Source: Nitrospira sp.
GTDB taxonomy: Bacteria; Nitrospirota; Nitrospiria; Nitrospirales; Nitrospiraceae
Assembly (NCBI GenBank): GCA_015709715.1
Contig: CP054184.1
Span: 2,465,001-2,529,000, forward strand
DNA length: 64,000 nucleotides
Direction of reading: 5' to 3'
In this document: positions 1-9,754 of the stretch, in pieces
Position numbering within the stretch: the stretch's first letter is position 1
How the letters are laid out: the number at the start of each line of letters is the position of its first letter
Translations under genes and position numbers: made by a program
Notes under the pieces: model-generated
Databases searched by the model: none
The model's input: only the letters and a program-made list of their open reading frames with translations
What the model was told of the DNA's origin: nothing

Positions 1-1452
1 CTGATGGTCCTTGCCGTTCTGAGAGTAATGCAGGACCTCGTGGACTCCAAGGTGGAAGCCGACAACAACCGCCGCCGGATCGAACAATTACGCAATTCCT
101 ATATTGGATTTCTCGACCCCGTTACCTTGGTTGCCCAAAACAAGCTGACGTTAAATCGGAACAACGATGGCTATTACAAGGACTACCTCGTACCCCTTCA
201 AAAACTTCGGCAACGCGGCTTGAGAGCTTCTGAGCATGCACTGCGGAAATCATTCGAATGGTTCTATAAACAGGTCCGTGACACATATGGAAAAGAGCGG
301 AGCGGGGCTAGCCTTGCGAAGTTCATTGACGACGTTTCGGACAAGCTCTTTTTTACAGTGATTACGGTGACCGACGAATTGAACGCGTTCAAGGTCTTCG
401 AAACGCTCAACGCACGTGGGGTGCAGCTGTCGCCCACAGATCTCCTCAAGAACTACCTGTTCTCGGTGGTACACCGCGAAAGCGCGCACTCCGGTGAGAT
501 TGAGACACTGGAGCGCCGCTGGGAGAATATGGTCGGGCGCCTCGGGGGCGAAAGCTTCCCGGATTTTCTTCGTGTGCACTGGAATAGCCGCCGGAAGTTC
601 GTTCGCGAGGCGGACTTGTTCAAGACCATCCGAGCCGAGACCCCAACCAAAGCGCGAGTCTTTGAGCTGATTCGCGACATGGAAGAGGACATCGACACGT
701 ACGTGGCGTTATCGAATCCCGAAGACGCCTTATGGTCAGACGACCAGAGGCCATATGTGCGCGAGTTGCGCATGTTCAGCGTTCGCCAGCCTTGGCCTGC
801 CTTGATTGCGGCCCGCCGTGCTTTTGATATGCAGGGATTCACGACTTTTTTGAAGGCCTGCAGCGTCATCGCGTTCAGATACAACGTGATCGGAAGTCTG
901 GCTACGAATGAACAGGAACGGGTCTATAACTCCGTCGCCCTTCGAATCGCTTCGAACGATTTTGGCTCACCTTTAGACGCGATACGATCGCTTGCGCCCA
1001 TTTACGTTCCCGATGCCGTCTTTCGTCTAGCCTTTGAAGGAAAGGTATTGCCTACTACGTCCTCGCGGAATCGGCATGTTGCTCGATACATTCTCTTCAG
1101 CCTAGAACGACACCTTACCGGGCAGGAGTATGACATCGACAGTCCGCGATATACCTTGGAGCACATCCTTCCTGAAAGCCCAGAGGAGAACTGGCCGGAA
1201 TTCACCGACGAGCAGGTAGCAGAATTTGTCTTCCGCCTCGGCAATTTGACCATCATGGAGGCAGGGCAAAACCGTGACTTGGGTAATGCTGGGTTCGACA
1301 ATAAACAGCAAGTCTATAGTCAAAGCCCTCTCGAAATTACAAAGAAAATTGCCCTCGAAAATACCGGCTGGAGCGTAGACCGCCTTGCCGAGCGCCAGCG
1401 TTGGATGGCCAAGCAAGCTACATCTATCTGGAAAATGTCACAATTGGGTTAG
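1..1452 (+). CDS. DUF262/DUF1524 restriction-like protein (5' truncated by window edge)
   Basis: This reading frame is open from the first base, so the gene very probably begins upstream and its N-terminal DUF262 motif is not visible. The C-terminal third carries a DUF1524-type HNH-like signature: YTLEHILPE near residue 386 followed by RLGNLTIM and an N-rich stretch (near residue 410), the layout seen in GmrSD-like type IV restriction enzymes that cut modified DNA. The middle contains the FKVFETLNARGVQLSPTDLLKN block typical of DUF262 proteins. Its GC content looks lower than the metabolic genes downstream, which fits horizontally acquired DNA. A restriction remnant follows 3 bases after the stop. 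The family call is firm; the defence role is inferred from the family. Confidence 0.8.
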   Translation: MMVLAVLRVMQDLVDSKVEADNNRRRIEQLRNSYIGFLDPVTLVAQNKLTLNRNNDGYYKDYLVPLQKLRQRGLRASEHALRKSFEWFYKQVRDTYGKERSGASLAKFIDDVSDKLFFTVITVTDELNAFKVFETLNARGVQLSPTDLLKNYLFSVVHRESAHSGEIETLERRWENMVGRLGGESFPDFLRVHWNSRRKFVREADLFKTIRAETPTKARVFELIRDMEEDIDTYVALSNPEDALWSDDQRPYVRELRMFSVRQPWPALIAARRAFDMQGFTTFLKACSVIAFRYNVIGSLATNEQERVYNSVALRIASNDFGSPLDAIRSLAPIYVPDAVFRLAFEGKVLPTTSSRNRHVARYILFSLERHLTGQEYDIDSPRYTLEHILPESPEENWPEFTDEQVAEFVFRLGNLTIMEAGQNRDLGNAGFDNKQQVYSQSPLEITKKIALENTGWSVDRLAERQRWMAKQATSIWKMSQLG

Positions 1453-1891: not shown

Positions 1892-4774
1892 TCATGCCAA
1901 GGCCTGCTCGATCGCCGACTTCAACGTCGCCAACCCCGCCTGCACATCGAGGTCGAGGTGGATCCGCAAGAGGCGCCGACCTCGTTCCGTCAACACGTGG
2001 AAGTCCCCGCGCGCCTGCATGGCCTTGACGAGACCGAACGTATACCGTTGCCCCGGTACCGACAGGTCGACGGCATCTTCGCACGTCAGCTGGAGAAAGA
2101 GGCCGTTGTGGGGTCCTCCCTTGTAGGCCTGTCCGGTGGAATGGAGAAATCGAGGGCCAAACTCGAGGCAGGTGGCGATGCGTTTGGCATCTCGGATCCT
2201 TTGACGCATGGCCTGCAGTTCCGCCTTGTATTGGGGACGCATCTCCAGGTAGGCCAACAACGCCACGTAATCGCCGGGCTTCAATTGATTGAGATGGGCC
2301 TTGAGATAGGCTTGCAAGGACGGTGTCGTCCCGGCGGCGGCGCGCAGCTCTCGGGCGTATTGAGGGGTCGCATAGAGGCTGAGGCCACGCTCCTCGAAGA
2401 TGGGCGTTTCTGCCGGTACCCTCCCGCTTCGTTCGTACTCGGTGGTCAATCGCTTCGTGGCTGCTTTGCCGGCCTCCACATCCGGCTGGTCGAAGGGATT
2501 GACTCCCAGGATCGCCCCGGCGACGGCGGTGGCAAATTCCCAGCGGAAGAATTCCTGTCCGATCTCGTACAGGTCGGCCACCGTCATGCGGACCACCGGG
2601 TGGCCTGCTCGCTCAAGCCGGTCGACCGCGGCATCGTGGATCGGGTCAGGGGAGGTCTGCAGCCGGATGGAGAGGAAGAGGCGGTCTTCTCCATACATCT
2701 TGGGATCTCCGACCGCTTCACCCTCGATGGGAATTATGCCTTTGCCGGTTTTCCCGGTCGATTCGGCCAGAAGCTGCTCGAGCCAGATGCCCAAGGAGTC
2801 GAGCTCAGGCGACGTGAGGATCGTGACCTTGTTGCATCCTCGATCGGCGAACACGGCAAGGATGGTCCCCAGCACCAGGCCGGGATTCTGCTCGACCGGT
2901 ACGCAGGGGAAACAAGCCTCTACCATTTCTTCCGCCCCCTCGAGGAATTGCTCGAGGTCCAGACCCATCACAGCCGCCGGGACCATGCCGAAGTTCGACA
3001 GGGCCGAGTAGCGACCGCCGATCGTCGGAACCCCGAAGTAGAGACGCCCAAAGCCGTCGGCTTCTGCCAGACGTTGGAGATCCGAGCCGGGGTCCGTGAT
3101 CGCGACGAACTGCCGTACGGCCGCTCTGGCTCCAACCAGGCGTTGGAGCCGATCAAAGAAATGCTGTTTCAAGAGCATCGATTCCATGGTGTTGCCGGAT
3201 TTGCTGGAGACGAGGATCAGCGTGGTCGCAAGCTGCAGCTTCTTTTCGACGGCCCTGATCTGCGCCGGATCCGTGGAATCCAGGACATGAAGTTCCGGAT
3301 ACCCCGCCTGCTTTCCGAATGTCGTCCGCAGGACCTCCGCGCAGAGACTCGACCCCCCCATGCCCAAGAGCAGCGCATGGGTAAAGCCTCTTCTGGAGAC
3401 CTCTTCCGCGAGGGAGGTGAGGGGGGAAAGATGCGCGAGTTGCTGATCGGTAATATCCAACCACCCAAGCCATTGATGCTCGTCGCCATCGGTCCAGAGC
3501 GACGCGTCGCGTTCCCACAGCCGTCGGACCTTGTTGGCGTTGCTCCACTCCTTGAGTGAGGTGTGCACGTCGGCCGCCACGGCGGCGGGCAGGCGGTAGG
3601 ACCAGCGGTTGAGTCGTCCGGGATAGGTACCCTTCCCGTGCCGGTCGATTGCGACGAGCAGGCGATCGAAGGCGCTACGGAAGGATTGCAACCCGTCCGC
3701 CAACAATCGGTCCGTGATTGCCGTCATCGAAAGCCCGGCCTGGTCCATGGCACGCAGCACTTCCCGCGCCCCATCAATGTGTGTGGCGAGGCGGCCGGCC
3801 GGACGTCCGTGGTCACGAAAGGCTTCAAGGGTAGCGGGAGCCATGGTGGCGACCGTGTCTGGTCCGATCAGCTCCTCCAGGTACTGCACATCGCGAGAGG
3901 GGGGATTCGTGGTGGTTGTGTCGGCCCAGAGTAGTCGTTGAGTCATGGCCCCGCGCCTGGCGAGCGCCTGCCAGCGTGGGCTCGAAAACAGCGTGCGATA
4001 ACGTTGATAGGCCAGCTTGGCGTTCGCAATCGCGACGGTTCCCTGTAGTCCCCTGAGCAGAGCCGTGGTCGTCTCGTCCGGGGCTGTCCGGAGGGCGGCG
4101 GCAGCCCAGGCATCCACCTCCGTATCGATGCGGCTGATGAAGAGACTTGCGACGCTTGCCACGCTCGTCAGGTCGCCGCCCCGTATCGACCGTTGTTCCA
4201 AGCCTATGAGATAGGCCTCTGCCACCGATTCATAGATATCTTGTGCGAAGATCCACGTGACGTTGACGTTGATTCCCTTGCCGATGAGTTGCACGATGGC
4301 CGGTATGCCTTCCGGCGTGGCCGGTATTGTGATCATCACGTTGTCTCGCCCGACAGCGTCCCACAGCCGTTTCGCCTCGTCGAGCATGCCCCGCGTGTCG
4401 TGAGCCAGGTGCGGTGAGACATCCAGGCTCACATACCCGTCGCGCCGCTTGGTACGGGCATAGATCGGCTGTAAGAGGTCGGCGACGGATTGCGCATCCT
4501 CGACGGCCAATCGTTCGTAGCGCGCCTTCGCATCCAGACCGGCCTCGCGTGTGAGGATGTGCAGCGCCTGGTCATAATCCGAACTCCCGGTAATGGCCTG
4601 TTCAAAGATGCTGGGATTCGACGTGACTCCGGACAAGCCATCCTCTTGGATCAGGCGCCGTAATGCCCCACTGGTGACGGCACCCCGCCGGAGGTCGTCC
4701 AACCAGATCGATTGGCCGAGCGCCGGGAGAGCACGGAGAGGGTTGTCGATCTTGATTTGCGAGACCTTCATCAT
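1892..4774 (-). CDS. Bifunctional transaldolase / glucose-6-phosphate isomerase; transaldolase lysine replaced
   Basis: A 960-residue fusion. Residues about 1-370 are a transaldolase domain (SGVTSNPSIFEQAI near 48, DVSPHLAHDT near 120). Residues about 410-960 are a phosphoglucose isomerase/SIS domain (SSKSGNTMES, AESTGKTGKG, STGQAYKGGP). Together they would serve the pentose-phosphate pathway and gluconeogenesis in the cytoplasm. In transaldolases the motif IKIPAT carries the Schiff-base lysine; here it reads MITIPATPEG, with ACA (Thr) where AAA (Lys) is expected, so the transaldolase half may be inactive. The start has a good ribosome site, AAGGAGCCGTC before ATG. The gene follows sthA in the same direction, 163 bases away. 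Confidence 0.93.
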   Translation of the reverse strand: MMKVSQIKIDNPLRALPALGQSIWLDDLRRGAVTSGALRRLIQEDGLSGVTSNPSIFEQAITGSSDYDQALHILTREAGLDAKARYERLAVEDAQSVADLLQPIYARTKRRDGYVSLDVSPHLAHDTRGMLDEAKRLWDAVGRDNVMITIPATPEGIPAIVQLIGKGINVNVTWIFAQDIYESVAEAYLIGLEQRSIRGGDLTSVASVASLFISRIDTEVDAWAAAALRTAPDETTTALLRGLQGTVAIANAKLAYQRYRTLFSSPRWQALARRGAMTQRLLWADTTTTNPPSRDVQYLEELIGPDTVATMAPATLEAFRDHGRPAGRLATHIDGAREVLRAMDQAGLSMTAITDRLLADGLQSFRSAFDRLLVAIDRHGKGTYPGRLNRWSYRLPAAVAADVHTSLKEWSNANKVRRLWERDASLWTDGDEHQWLGWLDITDQQLAHLSPLTSLAEEVSRRGFTHALLLGMGGSSLCAEVLRTTFGKQAGYPELHVLDSTDPAQIRAVEKKLQLATTLILVSSKSGNTMESMLLKQHFFDRLQRLVGARAAVRQFVAITDPGSDLQRLAEADGFGRLYFGVPTIGGRYSALSNFGMVPAAVMGLDLEQFLEGAEEMVEACFPCVPVEQNPGLVLGTILAVFADRGCNKVTILTSPELDSLGIWLEQLLAESTGKTGKGIIPIEGEAVGDPKMYGEDRLFLSIRLQTSPDPIHDAAVDRLERAGHPVVRMTVADLYEIGQEFFRWEFATAVAGAILGVNPFDQPDVEAGKAATKRLTTEYERSGRVPAETPIFEERGLSLYATPQYARELRAAAGTTPSLQAYLKAHLNQLKPGDYVALLAYLEMRPQYKAELQAMRQRIRDAKRIATCLEFGPRFLHSTGQAYKGGPHNGLFLQLTCEDAVDLSVPGQRYTFGLVKAMQARGDFHVLTERGRRLLRIHLDLDVQAGLATLKSAIEQALA

Positions 4775-4937: not shown

Positions 4938-6353
4938 TCATCGTCTGGACAGCTTATTGAAGGCGTCGAGTGAGGCCACCTTGTAACATTCCGCCAACGT
5001 CGGGTAATTGAATACGGTCTGCAAGAAGTAAGGCAGGCCTCCGCCCAACTCCACGACCGCCTGGCCGATATGGATCAGTTCTGTGGCGCCCGTTCCCACG
5101 GCATGGGCGCTCAGCAGCCGCTGGGTTTCACGATGGAACAGCAACTTCAGAAAGCCGCTGTCGTCCCCGAGAATCTGTCCTCGGGCGATCTCGCCGTAGC
5201 GAGCGATTCCGCTTTCATAGGGGATCTTCTTTTGGGTCAATTCATGTTCAGGCGGCCCGATGGCCGACACCTCCGGCAAGGCATAGATGCCGATCGGTAG
5301 ATAAGGGCTCATCGTGCCCGGGTCCACGCCGAACGCGTAACAGGCCGCCAGCCGGCCCTGCTGGAACGACGTGGAGGCCAAACTGGGATAACCGATGACG
5401 TCGCCCACGGCGAAGATGTGTGGGATGGCTGTTCGGAACTGTCGATCGACGGTCAATCGTCCCCGCTCATCGGGCTTAAGTCCCACGGCGTCGAGATTGA
5501 GTCGGCTGGTAGCCCCGATCCGGCCGACCGAAAAAAAGACATGATCGGCGGCAATGGTCTTGCCGGATTCCAGATAGACGACGGCCTGTCGCGGACCGGT
5601 GCCTGTGATGTCCAGCCGCTCGACGGCTTCCCCGAGGCGAAACGTGACCCGTCGCCGTCGCATTTGATGCATGAGTTCATCGACACTCTCTCGGTCGAGG
5701 AATTCCAACAGGCGGTCGCGCTTATCCACCACAATCACATCGCTCTGCAGGGCCGCGAACATGGAGGCGTATTCGATCCCGATGATGCCTCCGCCGACGA
5801 CCACGAGCTTTTTCGGCAACCGCTGCAGCCGGACCAGGTCGTCACTCGTGAGGATCAGGTTCCCGTCGGCCGGCACGCCGGGTGGTGGGGCCGGATAGGT
5901 GCCTACGGCAATGACGATGTTGTCGGCGGTGAGCGTCCGTTGTCCGTTGTCTGAGGTCACCGTCAGGGTGTGCGGATCGACAAAGGAGGCTTCGCCTCGA
6001 ATCAACCGGACTTCGTTTCGGCACAACTGCTGCTCGATCACCCGAGATTCGCCGCGGCCGACCACTCCCACACGATGAAGGAGTTCGTCCGCCGGAGGGC
6101 GGCGTCCTCGTTCCGTCTCGACGCTGAATCCCGACGCACGGCCGAATCCTCCGCGTTCGTGTGAGAGAGCGCACACGGCTTCGCGAAATGTCTTGCTCGG
6201 AATGGTGCCCTTATCCAGGCAGACGCCGCCCACCGTAGGGCCCTTCTCCACGACCGCCGCTCGCTTACCGAGTTTGGCCGCTTGAATCGCGGCCCGCTGA
6301 CCGGCCGGGCCACTGCCGATGCAGACGAGATCGAAGTCGAAACCTGTATCCAT
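4938..6353 (-). CDS. sthA: Soluble (Si-specific) NAD(P)+ transhydrogenase
   Basis: A 471-residue flavoprotein of the pyridine nucleotide-disulfide oxidoreductase family. The N-terminal FAD motif is CIGSGPAGQRAA. The redox site reads CLDKGTIPSK, where lipoamide dehydrogenases have a second cysteine; Thr at this place is typical of SthA, which balances NADPH and NADH without a disulfide. A second Rossmann motif, VVGGGIIGIEYA (near 180), binds the nicotinamide cofactor, and the C-terminal FNYPTLAECYKVA is the family dimer signature. Ribosome site GGAGGTGTC precedes the ATG. Its place upstream of the Tal-Pgi fusion on the same strand suggests a shared link to pentose-phosphate-derived NADPH. Confidence 0.9.
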   Translation of the reverse strand: MDTGFDFDLVCIGSGPAGQRAAIQAAKLGKRAAVVEKGPTVGGVCLDKGTIPSKTFREAVCALSHERGGFGRASGFSVETERGRRPPADELLHRVGVVGRGESRVIEQQLCRNEVRLIRGEASFVDPHTLTVTSDNGQRTLTADNIVIAVGTYPAPPPGVPADGNLILTSDDLVRLQRLPKKLVVVGGGIIGIEYASMFAALQSDVIVVDKRDRLLEFLDRESVDELMHQMRRRRVTFRLGEAVERLDITGTGPRQAVVYLESGKTIAADHVFFSVGRIGATSRLNLDAVGLKPDERGRLTVDRQFRTAIPHIFAVGDVIGYPSLASTSFQQGRLAACYAFGVDPGTMSPYLPIGIYALPEVSAIGPPEHELTQKKIPYESGIARYGEIARGQILGDDSGFLKLLFHRETQRLLSAHAVGTGATELIHIGQAVVELGGGLPYFLQTVFNYPTLAECYKVASLDAFNKLSRR

Positions 6354-7955: not shown

Positions 7956-9506
7956 TCATCCTGCGGCGCCGGCACCCATGCGAGTCTGGTCCACGAACCG
8001 CTCGGTCGCATCGTCGAGCGCGCGGGCCTGTCGCCCCCGATCCTTATGGATATAGATCAAGTGGTTCTCGACGCGATCTCGACGGGGAGGGGGCAGCGCC
8101 ATCTCATACGTAATCGGACGGCTGTGGTCGGCCAACTGGAGTGTCGGGTTATACACCGAGTTGAACTTCCACAGCATCTTGATGAAATTGGTTTGTCCGC
8201 GCAGGAGATGTCCTGCCGCGATTTTCGCCGTTCCCTTGAGCGCGTTCCATCCGAGATGCTTGATGTTCAGCACTTGCTGGGTCTTCACCAGTTCCTCATA
8301 GAATTCCCGAAGCGGCAGCCTGGTGGGCAGCACGGCATGCTGAATATCGAACAATCGGTAATCGCGGCTTTGGACCTTGTGTCCGTCCGTGTGCCAGCTC
8401 TCGGTGCCCGGATACGGAGTATTCACGCTGATATTGACGATTTCGGGAATGTCCAGGCACCACTGTCGAATGGTTTCGAAGCGGGCCCTGTCCCAATCGG
8501 GATCGGCAATGAGATTGATGGCCACGGTGATCCCTAGGGAGCGCGCAAACTCCAAGGCCTCGAAGTTCTTGCCCAGGGACACACGCTTGCGGTGCAGTTT
8601 CAGACCTGCTTCGTCGATGGCCTCGACTCCGATGAACATGTATTGCATCCCGAGGCGCTTCCAGAGTTTGAAGACGTCCTTGTTGCGCAGCAGGACATCG
8701 CCGCGTGTCTCCAGGTAGTACTGCTTCTTGATGCCCTTTCTGGCGATCGCTTCCCCGATCTCGGCGCCGTGTTTGGCTTGGATAAAGGCCACGTCATCCA
8801 CGATGAAGATGCCCGGCTCCTTGATCCTGGCCAAATCCTCGATGACGCGTTCCGGACTGAGCGGACGATAGCTGCGACCGTAGAACGTCCAGGCGCTGCA
8901 GAAGGAGCAGTCCCAGGGGCAGCCGCGGGTGAATTCGATCGAAGCGCAGGGATCCAGGACACCGATGAAGTACTTATGCCGGCGACGAAGGAGGTCACGG
9001 GCCGGCTGGAGATCATCCAGGCTCTGGACGAACATGGGAGGAGGGCCCTCGCCGTACAGGCTGACGGCGCCCGGCACCTGGGTCACGGCTCGACGATCCT
9101 GCTCGATGACGTCGAGCAGCAGCGGCAAGGCGGCCTCTCCTTCTCCTTTCAGGACGCAATCGATGGCCCCCGCGCCATGCGCCAACAATTCTGTGGCGAT
9201 AAAGGATGCACTGTGTCCGCCGACGAGCACGAAGCTCTTGGGAGACCGCTCCTTGGTCCGTTTGGCCAAGTCGAGAATTTCCGGCACATTGGCTAGATAA
9301 TTACAGGAGAACCCCACGACATCAGGCTGCCAACTCTCCAGGATCGCGAAGTAGTCTTTGTGGCGTTCCACCTGGAGGTCGATCAGGTAGACCTCGTGGC
9401 CGGCCCGGCGAACGGCTTCAGCAACCAGTTCCAGCCCCAACGGCTCCAATCGCAAAAAGATCTTGGTATACATCAGAGGACTTGGATGAACGGCCAGGAA
9501 CTTCAT
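7956..9506 (-). CDS. hpnR: B12-binding radical SAM protein, probable hopanoid C-3 methylase HpnR
   Basis: A 516-residue protein with an N-terminal cobalamin-binding-type domain (MKFLAVHPSPLMYTKIFLRL and following, about 1-150) and a radical SAM core with the cluster motif CPWDCSFC near residue 200, followed by SAWTFYGRSYR. The overall text, including RLEPLGLELVAEA, VGGHSASFIA and VNISVNTPYPGTES, matches my memory of HpnR, which methylates the A-ring of bacteriohopanepolyols at C-3 in the cytoplasmic membrane; C-2 methylases (HpnP) start quite differently. GGAGGAGA lies upstream of the ATG at 9506, which I chose over the ATG seven codons earlier. No other hopanoid gene is adjacent. The radical SAM call is certain, the substrate likely. 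Confidence 0.8.
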   Translation of the reverse strand: MKFLAVHPSPLMYTKIFLRLEPLGLELVAEAVRRAGHEVYLIDLQVERHKDYFAILESWQPDVVGFSCNYLANVPEILDLAKRTKERSPKSFVLVGGHSASFIATELLAHGAGAIDCVLKGEGEAALPLLLDVIEQDRRAVTQVPGAVSLYGEGPPPMFVQSLDDLQPARDLLRRRHKYFIGVLDPCASIEFTRGCPWDCSFCSAWTFYGRSYRPLSPERVIEDLARIKEPGIFIVDDVAFIQAKHGAEIGEAIARKGIKKQYYLETRGDVLLRNKDVFKLWKRLGMQYMFIGVEAIDEAGLKLHRKRVSLGKNFEALEFARSLGITVAINLIADPDWDRARFETIRQWCLDIPEIVNISVNTPYPGTESWHTDGHKVQSRDYRLFDIQHAVLPTRLPLREFYEELVKTQQVLNIKHLGWNALKGTAKIAAGHLLRGQTNFIKMLWKFNSVYNPTLQLADHSRPITYEMALPPPRRDRVENHLIYIHKDRGRQARALDDATERFVDQTRMGAGAAG

Positions 9507-9754
9507 GGTCTCAGGATCTCCTCCCATGCGTTTTCTGCATGGCCTTTGTGTGTATTGTAAGGGCGGCCTCTCGCTCCTGTGATTAGGCTAGTCCCTAGAG
9601 CAAGCCGCATACCACGACTCCCGCCGGACTGAATGGGCCTCCGTTCAACTCCAAACGACGCACGAATTCTGCCTACAGGGCGTCGAGGAGCTTCGAGAAG
9701 AGAAGGCTTGCGGGACCTGTCGGCAGACATCGACCCGCGATTGGTCGCGGTTTT

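What the first reader, a model, noticed from the sequence alone, without database searches (positions are those of the whole stretch)
4320..4350. Transaldolase half of the Tal-Pgi fusion lacks its Schiff-base lysine
The motif normally read as IKIPAT, which carries the catalytic lysine of transaldolases, reads MITIPATPEG; the codon is ACA instead of AAA, one base away. The rest of the domain is well kept, so this is either a recent inactivating change, a changed role for the domain, or a base-calling error. If real, the enzyme would act only as isomerase and the cell would need another transaldolase.
Basis: partly seen in the sequence, partly recalled or inferred. Interest (0 to 1): 0.6.

Follow-up and report, generated by a model that had tools for sequence, protein, structure and literature searches.

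The report
Fused enzyme with dismantled transaldolase half
A Nitrospira genome carries a spare copy of a fused sugar-phosphate enzyme whose transaldolase half has lost its catalytic lysine and several other active-site residues; an intact copy elsewhere in the genome can do that job, so this is a real but modest case of an enzyme domain that has lost, or changed, its function.

Summary
In a 960-aa Tal-Pgi fusion (window 1892-4774, minus strand) residue 149, the Schiff-base lysine of transaldolases, is Thr (ACA, 4328-4330). It is not a base-calling error: the same domain also lost E118 (D), S285 (D), the probable phosphate-binding K289 (T) and N309 (A). It departs at 11 of 91 near-invariant Tal positions, while intact Nitrospira relatives depart at 0-1. 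The Pgi half departs at 3 of 115. The AlphaFold model keeps a complete transaldolase barrel (Z 53, rmsd 1.0-1.1 A to N. gonorrhoeae Tal). The same genome holds an intact Lys-type Tal-Pgi (71% identical) in a tkt-tal/pgi-zwf-gnd operon, plus a small TalC-type transaldolase, so loss here need not matter. The window copy keeps part of the old gene neighbourhood (SthA, sigma-54 regulator). Three standalone transaldolase paralogues in other species of the genus also have Thr at exactly this position. Each lies directly beside an hpnR (hopanoid C-3 methylase) gene, and the window copy is three genes from one. The Thr change probably arose twice, though a single origin is not rejected. Best reading: a diverged second copy, isomerase-only in catalysis, with a dead or repurposed transaldolase domain.

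The parts
1892..4774 (-). Tal-Pgi fusion, 960 aa, Thr at the Schiff-base position
   Evidence: NF007080 1336 bits; PF00923 and PF00342; translation
3635..4774 (-). Transaldolase half (aa 1-380): TIM barrel intact in the model, active-site residues changed
   Evidence: model matches 7bbx, 7oey and 7bbw at Z about 53, rmsd 1.0-1.1 A; 11 of 91 near-invariant positions changed
4328..4330 (-). codon 149, ACA (Thr) in place of the Schiff-base Lys, on modelled barrel strand 146-151
4421..4423 (-). codon 118, GAT (Asp); Glu in all Lys-type relatives compared
3920..3922 (-). codon 285, Asp; Ser in all Lys-type relatives compared
3908..3910 (-). codon 289, ACG (Thr); Lys in all Lys-type relatives; probable phosphate ligand (equivalent of Arg228 in E. 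coli TalB, assigned from memory of TalB)
3848..3850 (-). codon 309, Ala; Asn in all Lys-type relatives, Thr in the three standalone Thr-type proteins
1895..3628 (-). Phosphoglucose isomerase half (aa 383-960), conserved residues kept (3 of 115 near-invariant positions changed: G640A, R647C, A919M)
4938..6353 (-). SthA-like Si-specific NAD(P)(+) transhydrogenase, old neighbour of Tal-Pgi in the genus
   Evidence: NF003585 570 bits; synteny
7956..9527 (-). HpnR, B12-binding radical SAM hopanoid C-3 methylase; adjacent to all three standalone Thr-type transaldolases elsewhere
   Evidence: TIGR04367 908 bits
9755..11503 (-). NifA-like sigma-54-dependent regulator, old neighbour of Tal-Pgi

Best explanation
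The gene is a diverged second copy of Tal-Pgi that sits in part of the ancestral cluster (Tal-Pgi, SthA, a small protein, sigma-54 regulator) and no longer belongs to the pentose-phosphate operon. Shown: its transaldolase half has lost the Schiff-base Lys and at least four other conserved active-site residues but keeps the barrel fold (in a predicted model), and the Pgi half keeps its conserved residues. Shown: an intact Lys-type copy is encoded in a tkt-zwf-gnd operon at C1:3.096 Mb of the same genome. Inferred: without Lys149 no dihydroxyacetone Schiff base can form, so the protein is no transaldolase and can only act as a phosphoglucose isomerase; the barrel is kept as a structural half or a substrate-binding remnant of the fused protein. 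Inferred: redundancy with the operon copy let the Tal active site decay.
For: Lys is present at position 149 in all other Tal-Pgi fusions examined. Tal half 11/91 versus Pgi half 3/115 near-invariant positions changed (Fisher p = 0.010); other Nitrospira copies 0-1 in either half. Barrel intact in the model; most of the changed residues lie in or just after modelled barrel strands 114-118, 146-151, 170-175, 207-212, 280-284 and 307-311. The intact paralogue lies in an operon with transketolase, zwf and gnd. A TalC-type protein with Lys is at C1:1.881 Mb. The open frame of 960 codons and a branch dN/dS of about 0.12-0.15 for the Pgi half and 0.15-0.24 for the Tal half say the protein is still constrained.
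Against: The Tal half has not decayed freely: dN/dS is well below 1 and no stops have entered, which could mean it keeps a function of its own. The Pgi half also evolved faster than in the operon copy (about 73% versus 83% identity to relatives), so its activity is assumed, not shown. Three standalone Thr-type paralogues without any Pgi half are also maintained (dN/dS 0.3), which a purely structural role within a fusion cannot explain for them.
Confidence: 0.7

Rival explanations
1. Repurposed domain: Thr-type transaldolase-fold proteins in Nitrospira have a new role (binding, or a different Lys-free chemistry) linked to HpnR or its pathway.
For: The same K to T replacement occurs in all four Lys-less proteins; the three standalone ones are each directly beside hpnR and the window copy is three genes from hpnR; the standalone proteins are under purifying selection (NG86 dN/dS 0.30 against 0.18 for the Lys-type pair of the same two genomes); D26, T173 and S210 are kept in all four.
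Against: Position 149 is the only derived residue shared by all four. Among hpnR copies the window's is sister to G008's, not to the Thr-linked ones (p-AU 0.004 against grouping it with them alone). Most hpnR genomes have no Thr-type Tal, and G008, which shares the window's HpnR-SthA arrangement, has no Tal-Pgi at all. N53 and R215 are lost in G009 and E118 in G001.
Confidence: 0.15
2. Redundant copy on the way to loss: neither half matters, and the gene is a slowly decaying duplicate.
For: An intact operon copy and a further Pgi-type gene (C1:1995248) exist; the long branch affects both halves; G008 has the neighbouring genes without Tal-Pgi.
Against: 960 codons without stop or frameshift, dN/dS of about 0.12-0.24 over a dS of about 0.7-0.9, and 112 of 115 near-invariant Pgi positions kept.
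Confidence: 0.12
3. Sequencing or assembly error at codon 149.
For: ACA and AAA differ by one base; reads are not available here.
Against: At least four other near-invariant active-site positions are changed in the same domain; Thr occurs at the same site in three other genomes.
Confidence: 0.01

Closest known systems
Bifunctional transaldolase/phosphoglucose isomerase (NCBIfam NF007080; described in Gluconobacter oxydans by Sugiyama et al. 2003, cited in PMC4378227)
   Same: Domain order, length, 1336 bits over the whole protein, Pgi half conserved
   Different: Schiff-base Lys and several other transaldolase active-site residues missing
Neisseria gonorrhoeae transaldolase (PDB 7bbw, 3clm)
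   Same: Fold of the Tal half: Z about 53, rmsd 1.0-1.1 A, 40-41% identity
   Different: Active Schiff-base enzyme; carries Lys where the window has Thr149, and Lys at 289
Francisella tularensis transaldolase K135M (PDB 3te9)
   Same: A transaldolase barrel whose title names a mutated Lys, crystallised as a complex; taken here as a laboratory analogue of a Lys-less domain that may still bind a ligand (inference from the title; residue correspondence not checked)
   Different: Laboratory mutant; the natural protein here has lost further residues
Standalone Thr-type transaldolases of the same genus (G001:C1:1504116, G006:C1:912994, G009:C979:2673)
   Same: K to T at the same position, loss of K289 and N309, hpnR nearby
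   Different: No Pgi half; 20 of 91 near-invariant positions changed

Membership tests
NF007080 bifunctional Tal-Pgi (by descent) | Full-length match above the curated cut-off | tested here: met
   1336 bits against a cut-off of 712, residues 10-959
Transaldolase (as an active enzyme) | Schiff-base lysine on barrel strand 4 | tested here: not met
   Thr149
Transaldolase (as an active enzyme) | Catalytic acid/base residues: Asp of strand 1 and Glu of strand 3 | tested here: inconclusive
   D26 kept; E118 replaced by Asp
Transaldolase (as an active enzyme) | Phosphate-binding basic residues (R215, K289) | tested here: not met
   R215 kept, K289 replaced by Thr; ligand role assigned from memory of TalB
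Transaldolase fold | TIM barrel of the TAL family | tested here: met
   PF00923 251 bits; model Z 53 to N. gonorrhoeae Tal
Phosphoglucose isomerase | PGI fold and conserved motifs (SKSGNT, GGRYSALS, ESTGK, NPFDQPDVEAGK) | tested here: met
Phosphoglucose isomerase | Isomerase activity | not testable with these tools
   needs an assay

The most novel reading that the evidence does not exclude
Lys-less, Thr-type transaldolase-fold proteins are a small functional class in Nitrospira, reached twice independently, that serves the HpnR (hopanoid C-3 methylation) context, for instance by binding a sugar phosphate without covalent catalysis.
Probability: 0.12. Interest if true: 0.6.

Novelty: new variant of a known kind. 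Interest (0 to 1): 0.38.

Why it matters
It is a natural case in which one half of a fused metabolic enzyme has lost its chemistry while the other half stays conserved, with the intact copy in the same genome for comparison. Automatic annotation calls it a bifunctional transaldolase at high score, which would mislead models of pentose-phosphate metabolism. The repeated Lys to Thr change near hpnR is a concrete lead for a possible new role of the fold.

Tried and rejected
Single origin of all four Thr-type proteins: the best tree needs two changes, but one clade is not rejected (p-AU 0.33), so it stays open. A tree of the small 6395 neighbour did not resolve the history of the clusters. A pattern scan of 395 genomes of the phylum found the Lys-less motif only in the window, G001 and G006, plus one chance hit in an unrelated protein (G243: a membrane protein with an HD-type segment, judged by reading it). 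A viral contig search with the G001 standalone protein found no relative. A suspected segment permutation of the Pgi half (note) was dropped: the structural alignment is collinear with canonical PGI over 383-791, and residues beyond about 800 are extra. YN00 dN/dS failed for several window pairs, so NG86 was used; the distances are large and the values rough. Literature searches found no paper on Lys-less natural transaldolases; most subscription journals are not held.

Full report
What is there. Window 1892-4774 (minus) encodes a 960-aa fusion of a transaldolase (Tal) and a phosphoglucose isomerase (Pgi). It scores 1336 bits to NCBIfam NF007080 against a cut-off of 712, with Pfam PF00923 and PF00342 in the two halves. 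In the alignment with N. gonorrhoeae transaldolase this residue faces the Lys of MIKVPAT.

Is it more than one base? Yes. Comparing the protein with 39 Lys-type Tal-Pgi fusions, 91 Tal and 115 Pgi columns are nearly invariant (at least 97%). The window departs at 11 of the Tal columns (A97V, E118D, T130M, K149T, L174W, F211L, S285D, K289T, V299L, N309A, P312A) and at 3 of the Pgi columns (G640A, R647C, A919M); Fisher p = 0.010. The other Nitrospira Tal-Pgi proteins of the same clade depart at 0 or 1 in either half. A sequencing error at one codon cannot give this picture.

Structure. An AlphaFold model made from 24 aligned proteins has mean pLDDT 87.6 and pTM 0.63. The Tal half matches N. gonorrhoeae transaldolase at Z about 53, rmsd 1.0-1.1 A over 350 residues; the Pgi half (383 to about 790) matches bacterial PGI at Z 37. 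Thr149 lies on strand 146-151; residues 118, 174, 211, 285, 289, 309 and 312 lie in or just after other barrel strands, where the active site of such barrels is. The fold is predicted to be intact and the chemistry is not. That Lys149 is the Schiff-base residue and K289 the phosphate ligand follows from family knowledge of TalB, not from an experiment here. A Lys mutant of F. tularensis transaldolase (K135M, PDB 3te9) was crystallised as a complex, which suggests that a Lys-less barrel may still bind ligand; I know it only from the entry title.

The other copies in the genome. The genome is one contig of 4,156,062 bases; the window is 2465001-2529000 of it. It has a second Tal-Pgi at 3096077-3098956 (71% identical, Lys kept), lying between a transketolase and zwf, followed by gnd (zwf read from its sequence and from the family of the matching gene in G027), and a small TalC-type protein with its Lys at 1880870-1881505. 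In relatives such as G027 one cluster reads gnd-zwf-TalPgi-tkt-(small)-SthA-(6395)-sigma54 regulator. Here the cluster is in two places: the pentose-phosphate operon with the intact copy, and the window with SthA, 6395 and the regulator beside the Lys-less copy. G008 has regulator-HpnR-(x)-6395-SthA and no Tal-Pgi at all.

Other Lys-less transaldolases. Of more than 60 homologues from genomes of many phyla, only four lack the Lys, all with Thr: the window protein and three standalone Tal proteins of the same genus (G001:C1:1504116, G006:C1:912994, G009:C979:2673). A pattern scan of 395 genomes of the phylum found no further case; it tests Thr only, and only in this motif. All four fall inside the Nitrospira Tal-Pgi clade; the best tree, with the trait columns left out, needs two changes, and one origin is not rejected (p-AU 0.33). 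Position 149 is the only derived residue shared by all four, and the codons differ (ACA here, ACG in the others), which favours two origins. The standalone genes have no Pgi remnant nearby and are under purifying selection (dN/dS 0.30).

The hpnR link. The three standalone genes lie directly beside hpnR, and the window copy lies three genes from it. hpnR occurs in 13 of 61 related genomes, so four of four is notable. But the window's hpnR is sister to that of G008 and is not grouped with the three others alone (p-AU 0.004), though a group with G008 included is not rejected (0.138). The link was noticed after the fact, so I treat it as a lead.

Selection. Branch estimates for the window gene are dN/dS 0.15-0.24 (Tal) and 0.12-0.15 (Pgi) over a dS of about 0.7-0.9. 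These are rough (NG86, large distances) but say that the protein has been kept for a long time; the change is not shown to be recent.

Conclusion. The finding is real, the base-error option is out, and the most likely reading is an isomerase-only second copy with a dead or non-covalent transaldolase domain. Whether the domain has gained a role is open. The literature searched holds nothing on natural Lys-less transaldolases, but that library lacks most subscription journals.

Noticed in passing
window 7956-9527: HpnR, hopanoid C-3 methylase (TIGR04367, 908 bits), next to a sigma-54 regulator; in the same genus three hpnR genes are directly beside Lys-less standalone transaldolases.
   Followed up: partly
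window 1892-2380 (aa about 800-960 of Tal-Pgi): The Pgi half of these fusions carries a C-terminal stretch of about 160 aa beyond the canonical PGI fold, conserved across the fusions aligned (invariant LHSTGQ..KGGP), with no match reported in the structure comparison. It was not folded or searched alone.
   Followed up: partly
window 1-1452: GmrSD-type restriction endonuclease gene, cut by the window start (PF07510, PF03235).
   Followed up: no
L191 (G008:C1:1955000-1974500) and L034: The pentose-phosphate cluster that is contiguous in relatives is split in the window's genome, and G008 lacks Tal-Pgi altogether.
   Followed up: partly
L160 9935-16963 (G006): A glycogen phosphorylase-type gene sits between the hpnR/Lys-less Tal pair and a Lys-type standalone Tal; G001 keeps only a 154-aa ORF matching that family at the same locus.
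   Followed up: no
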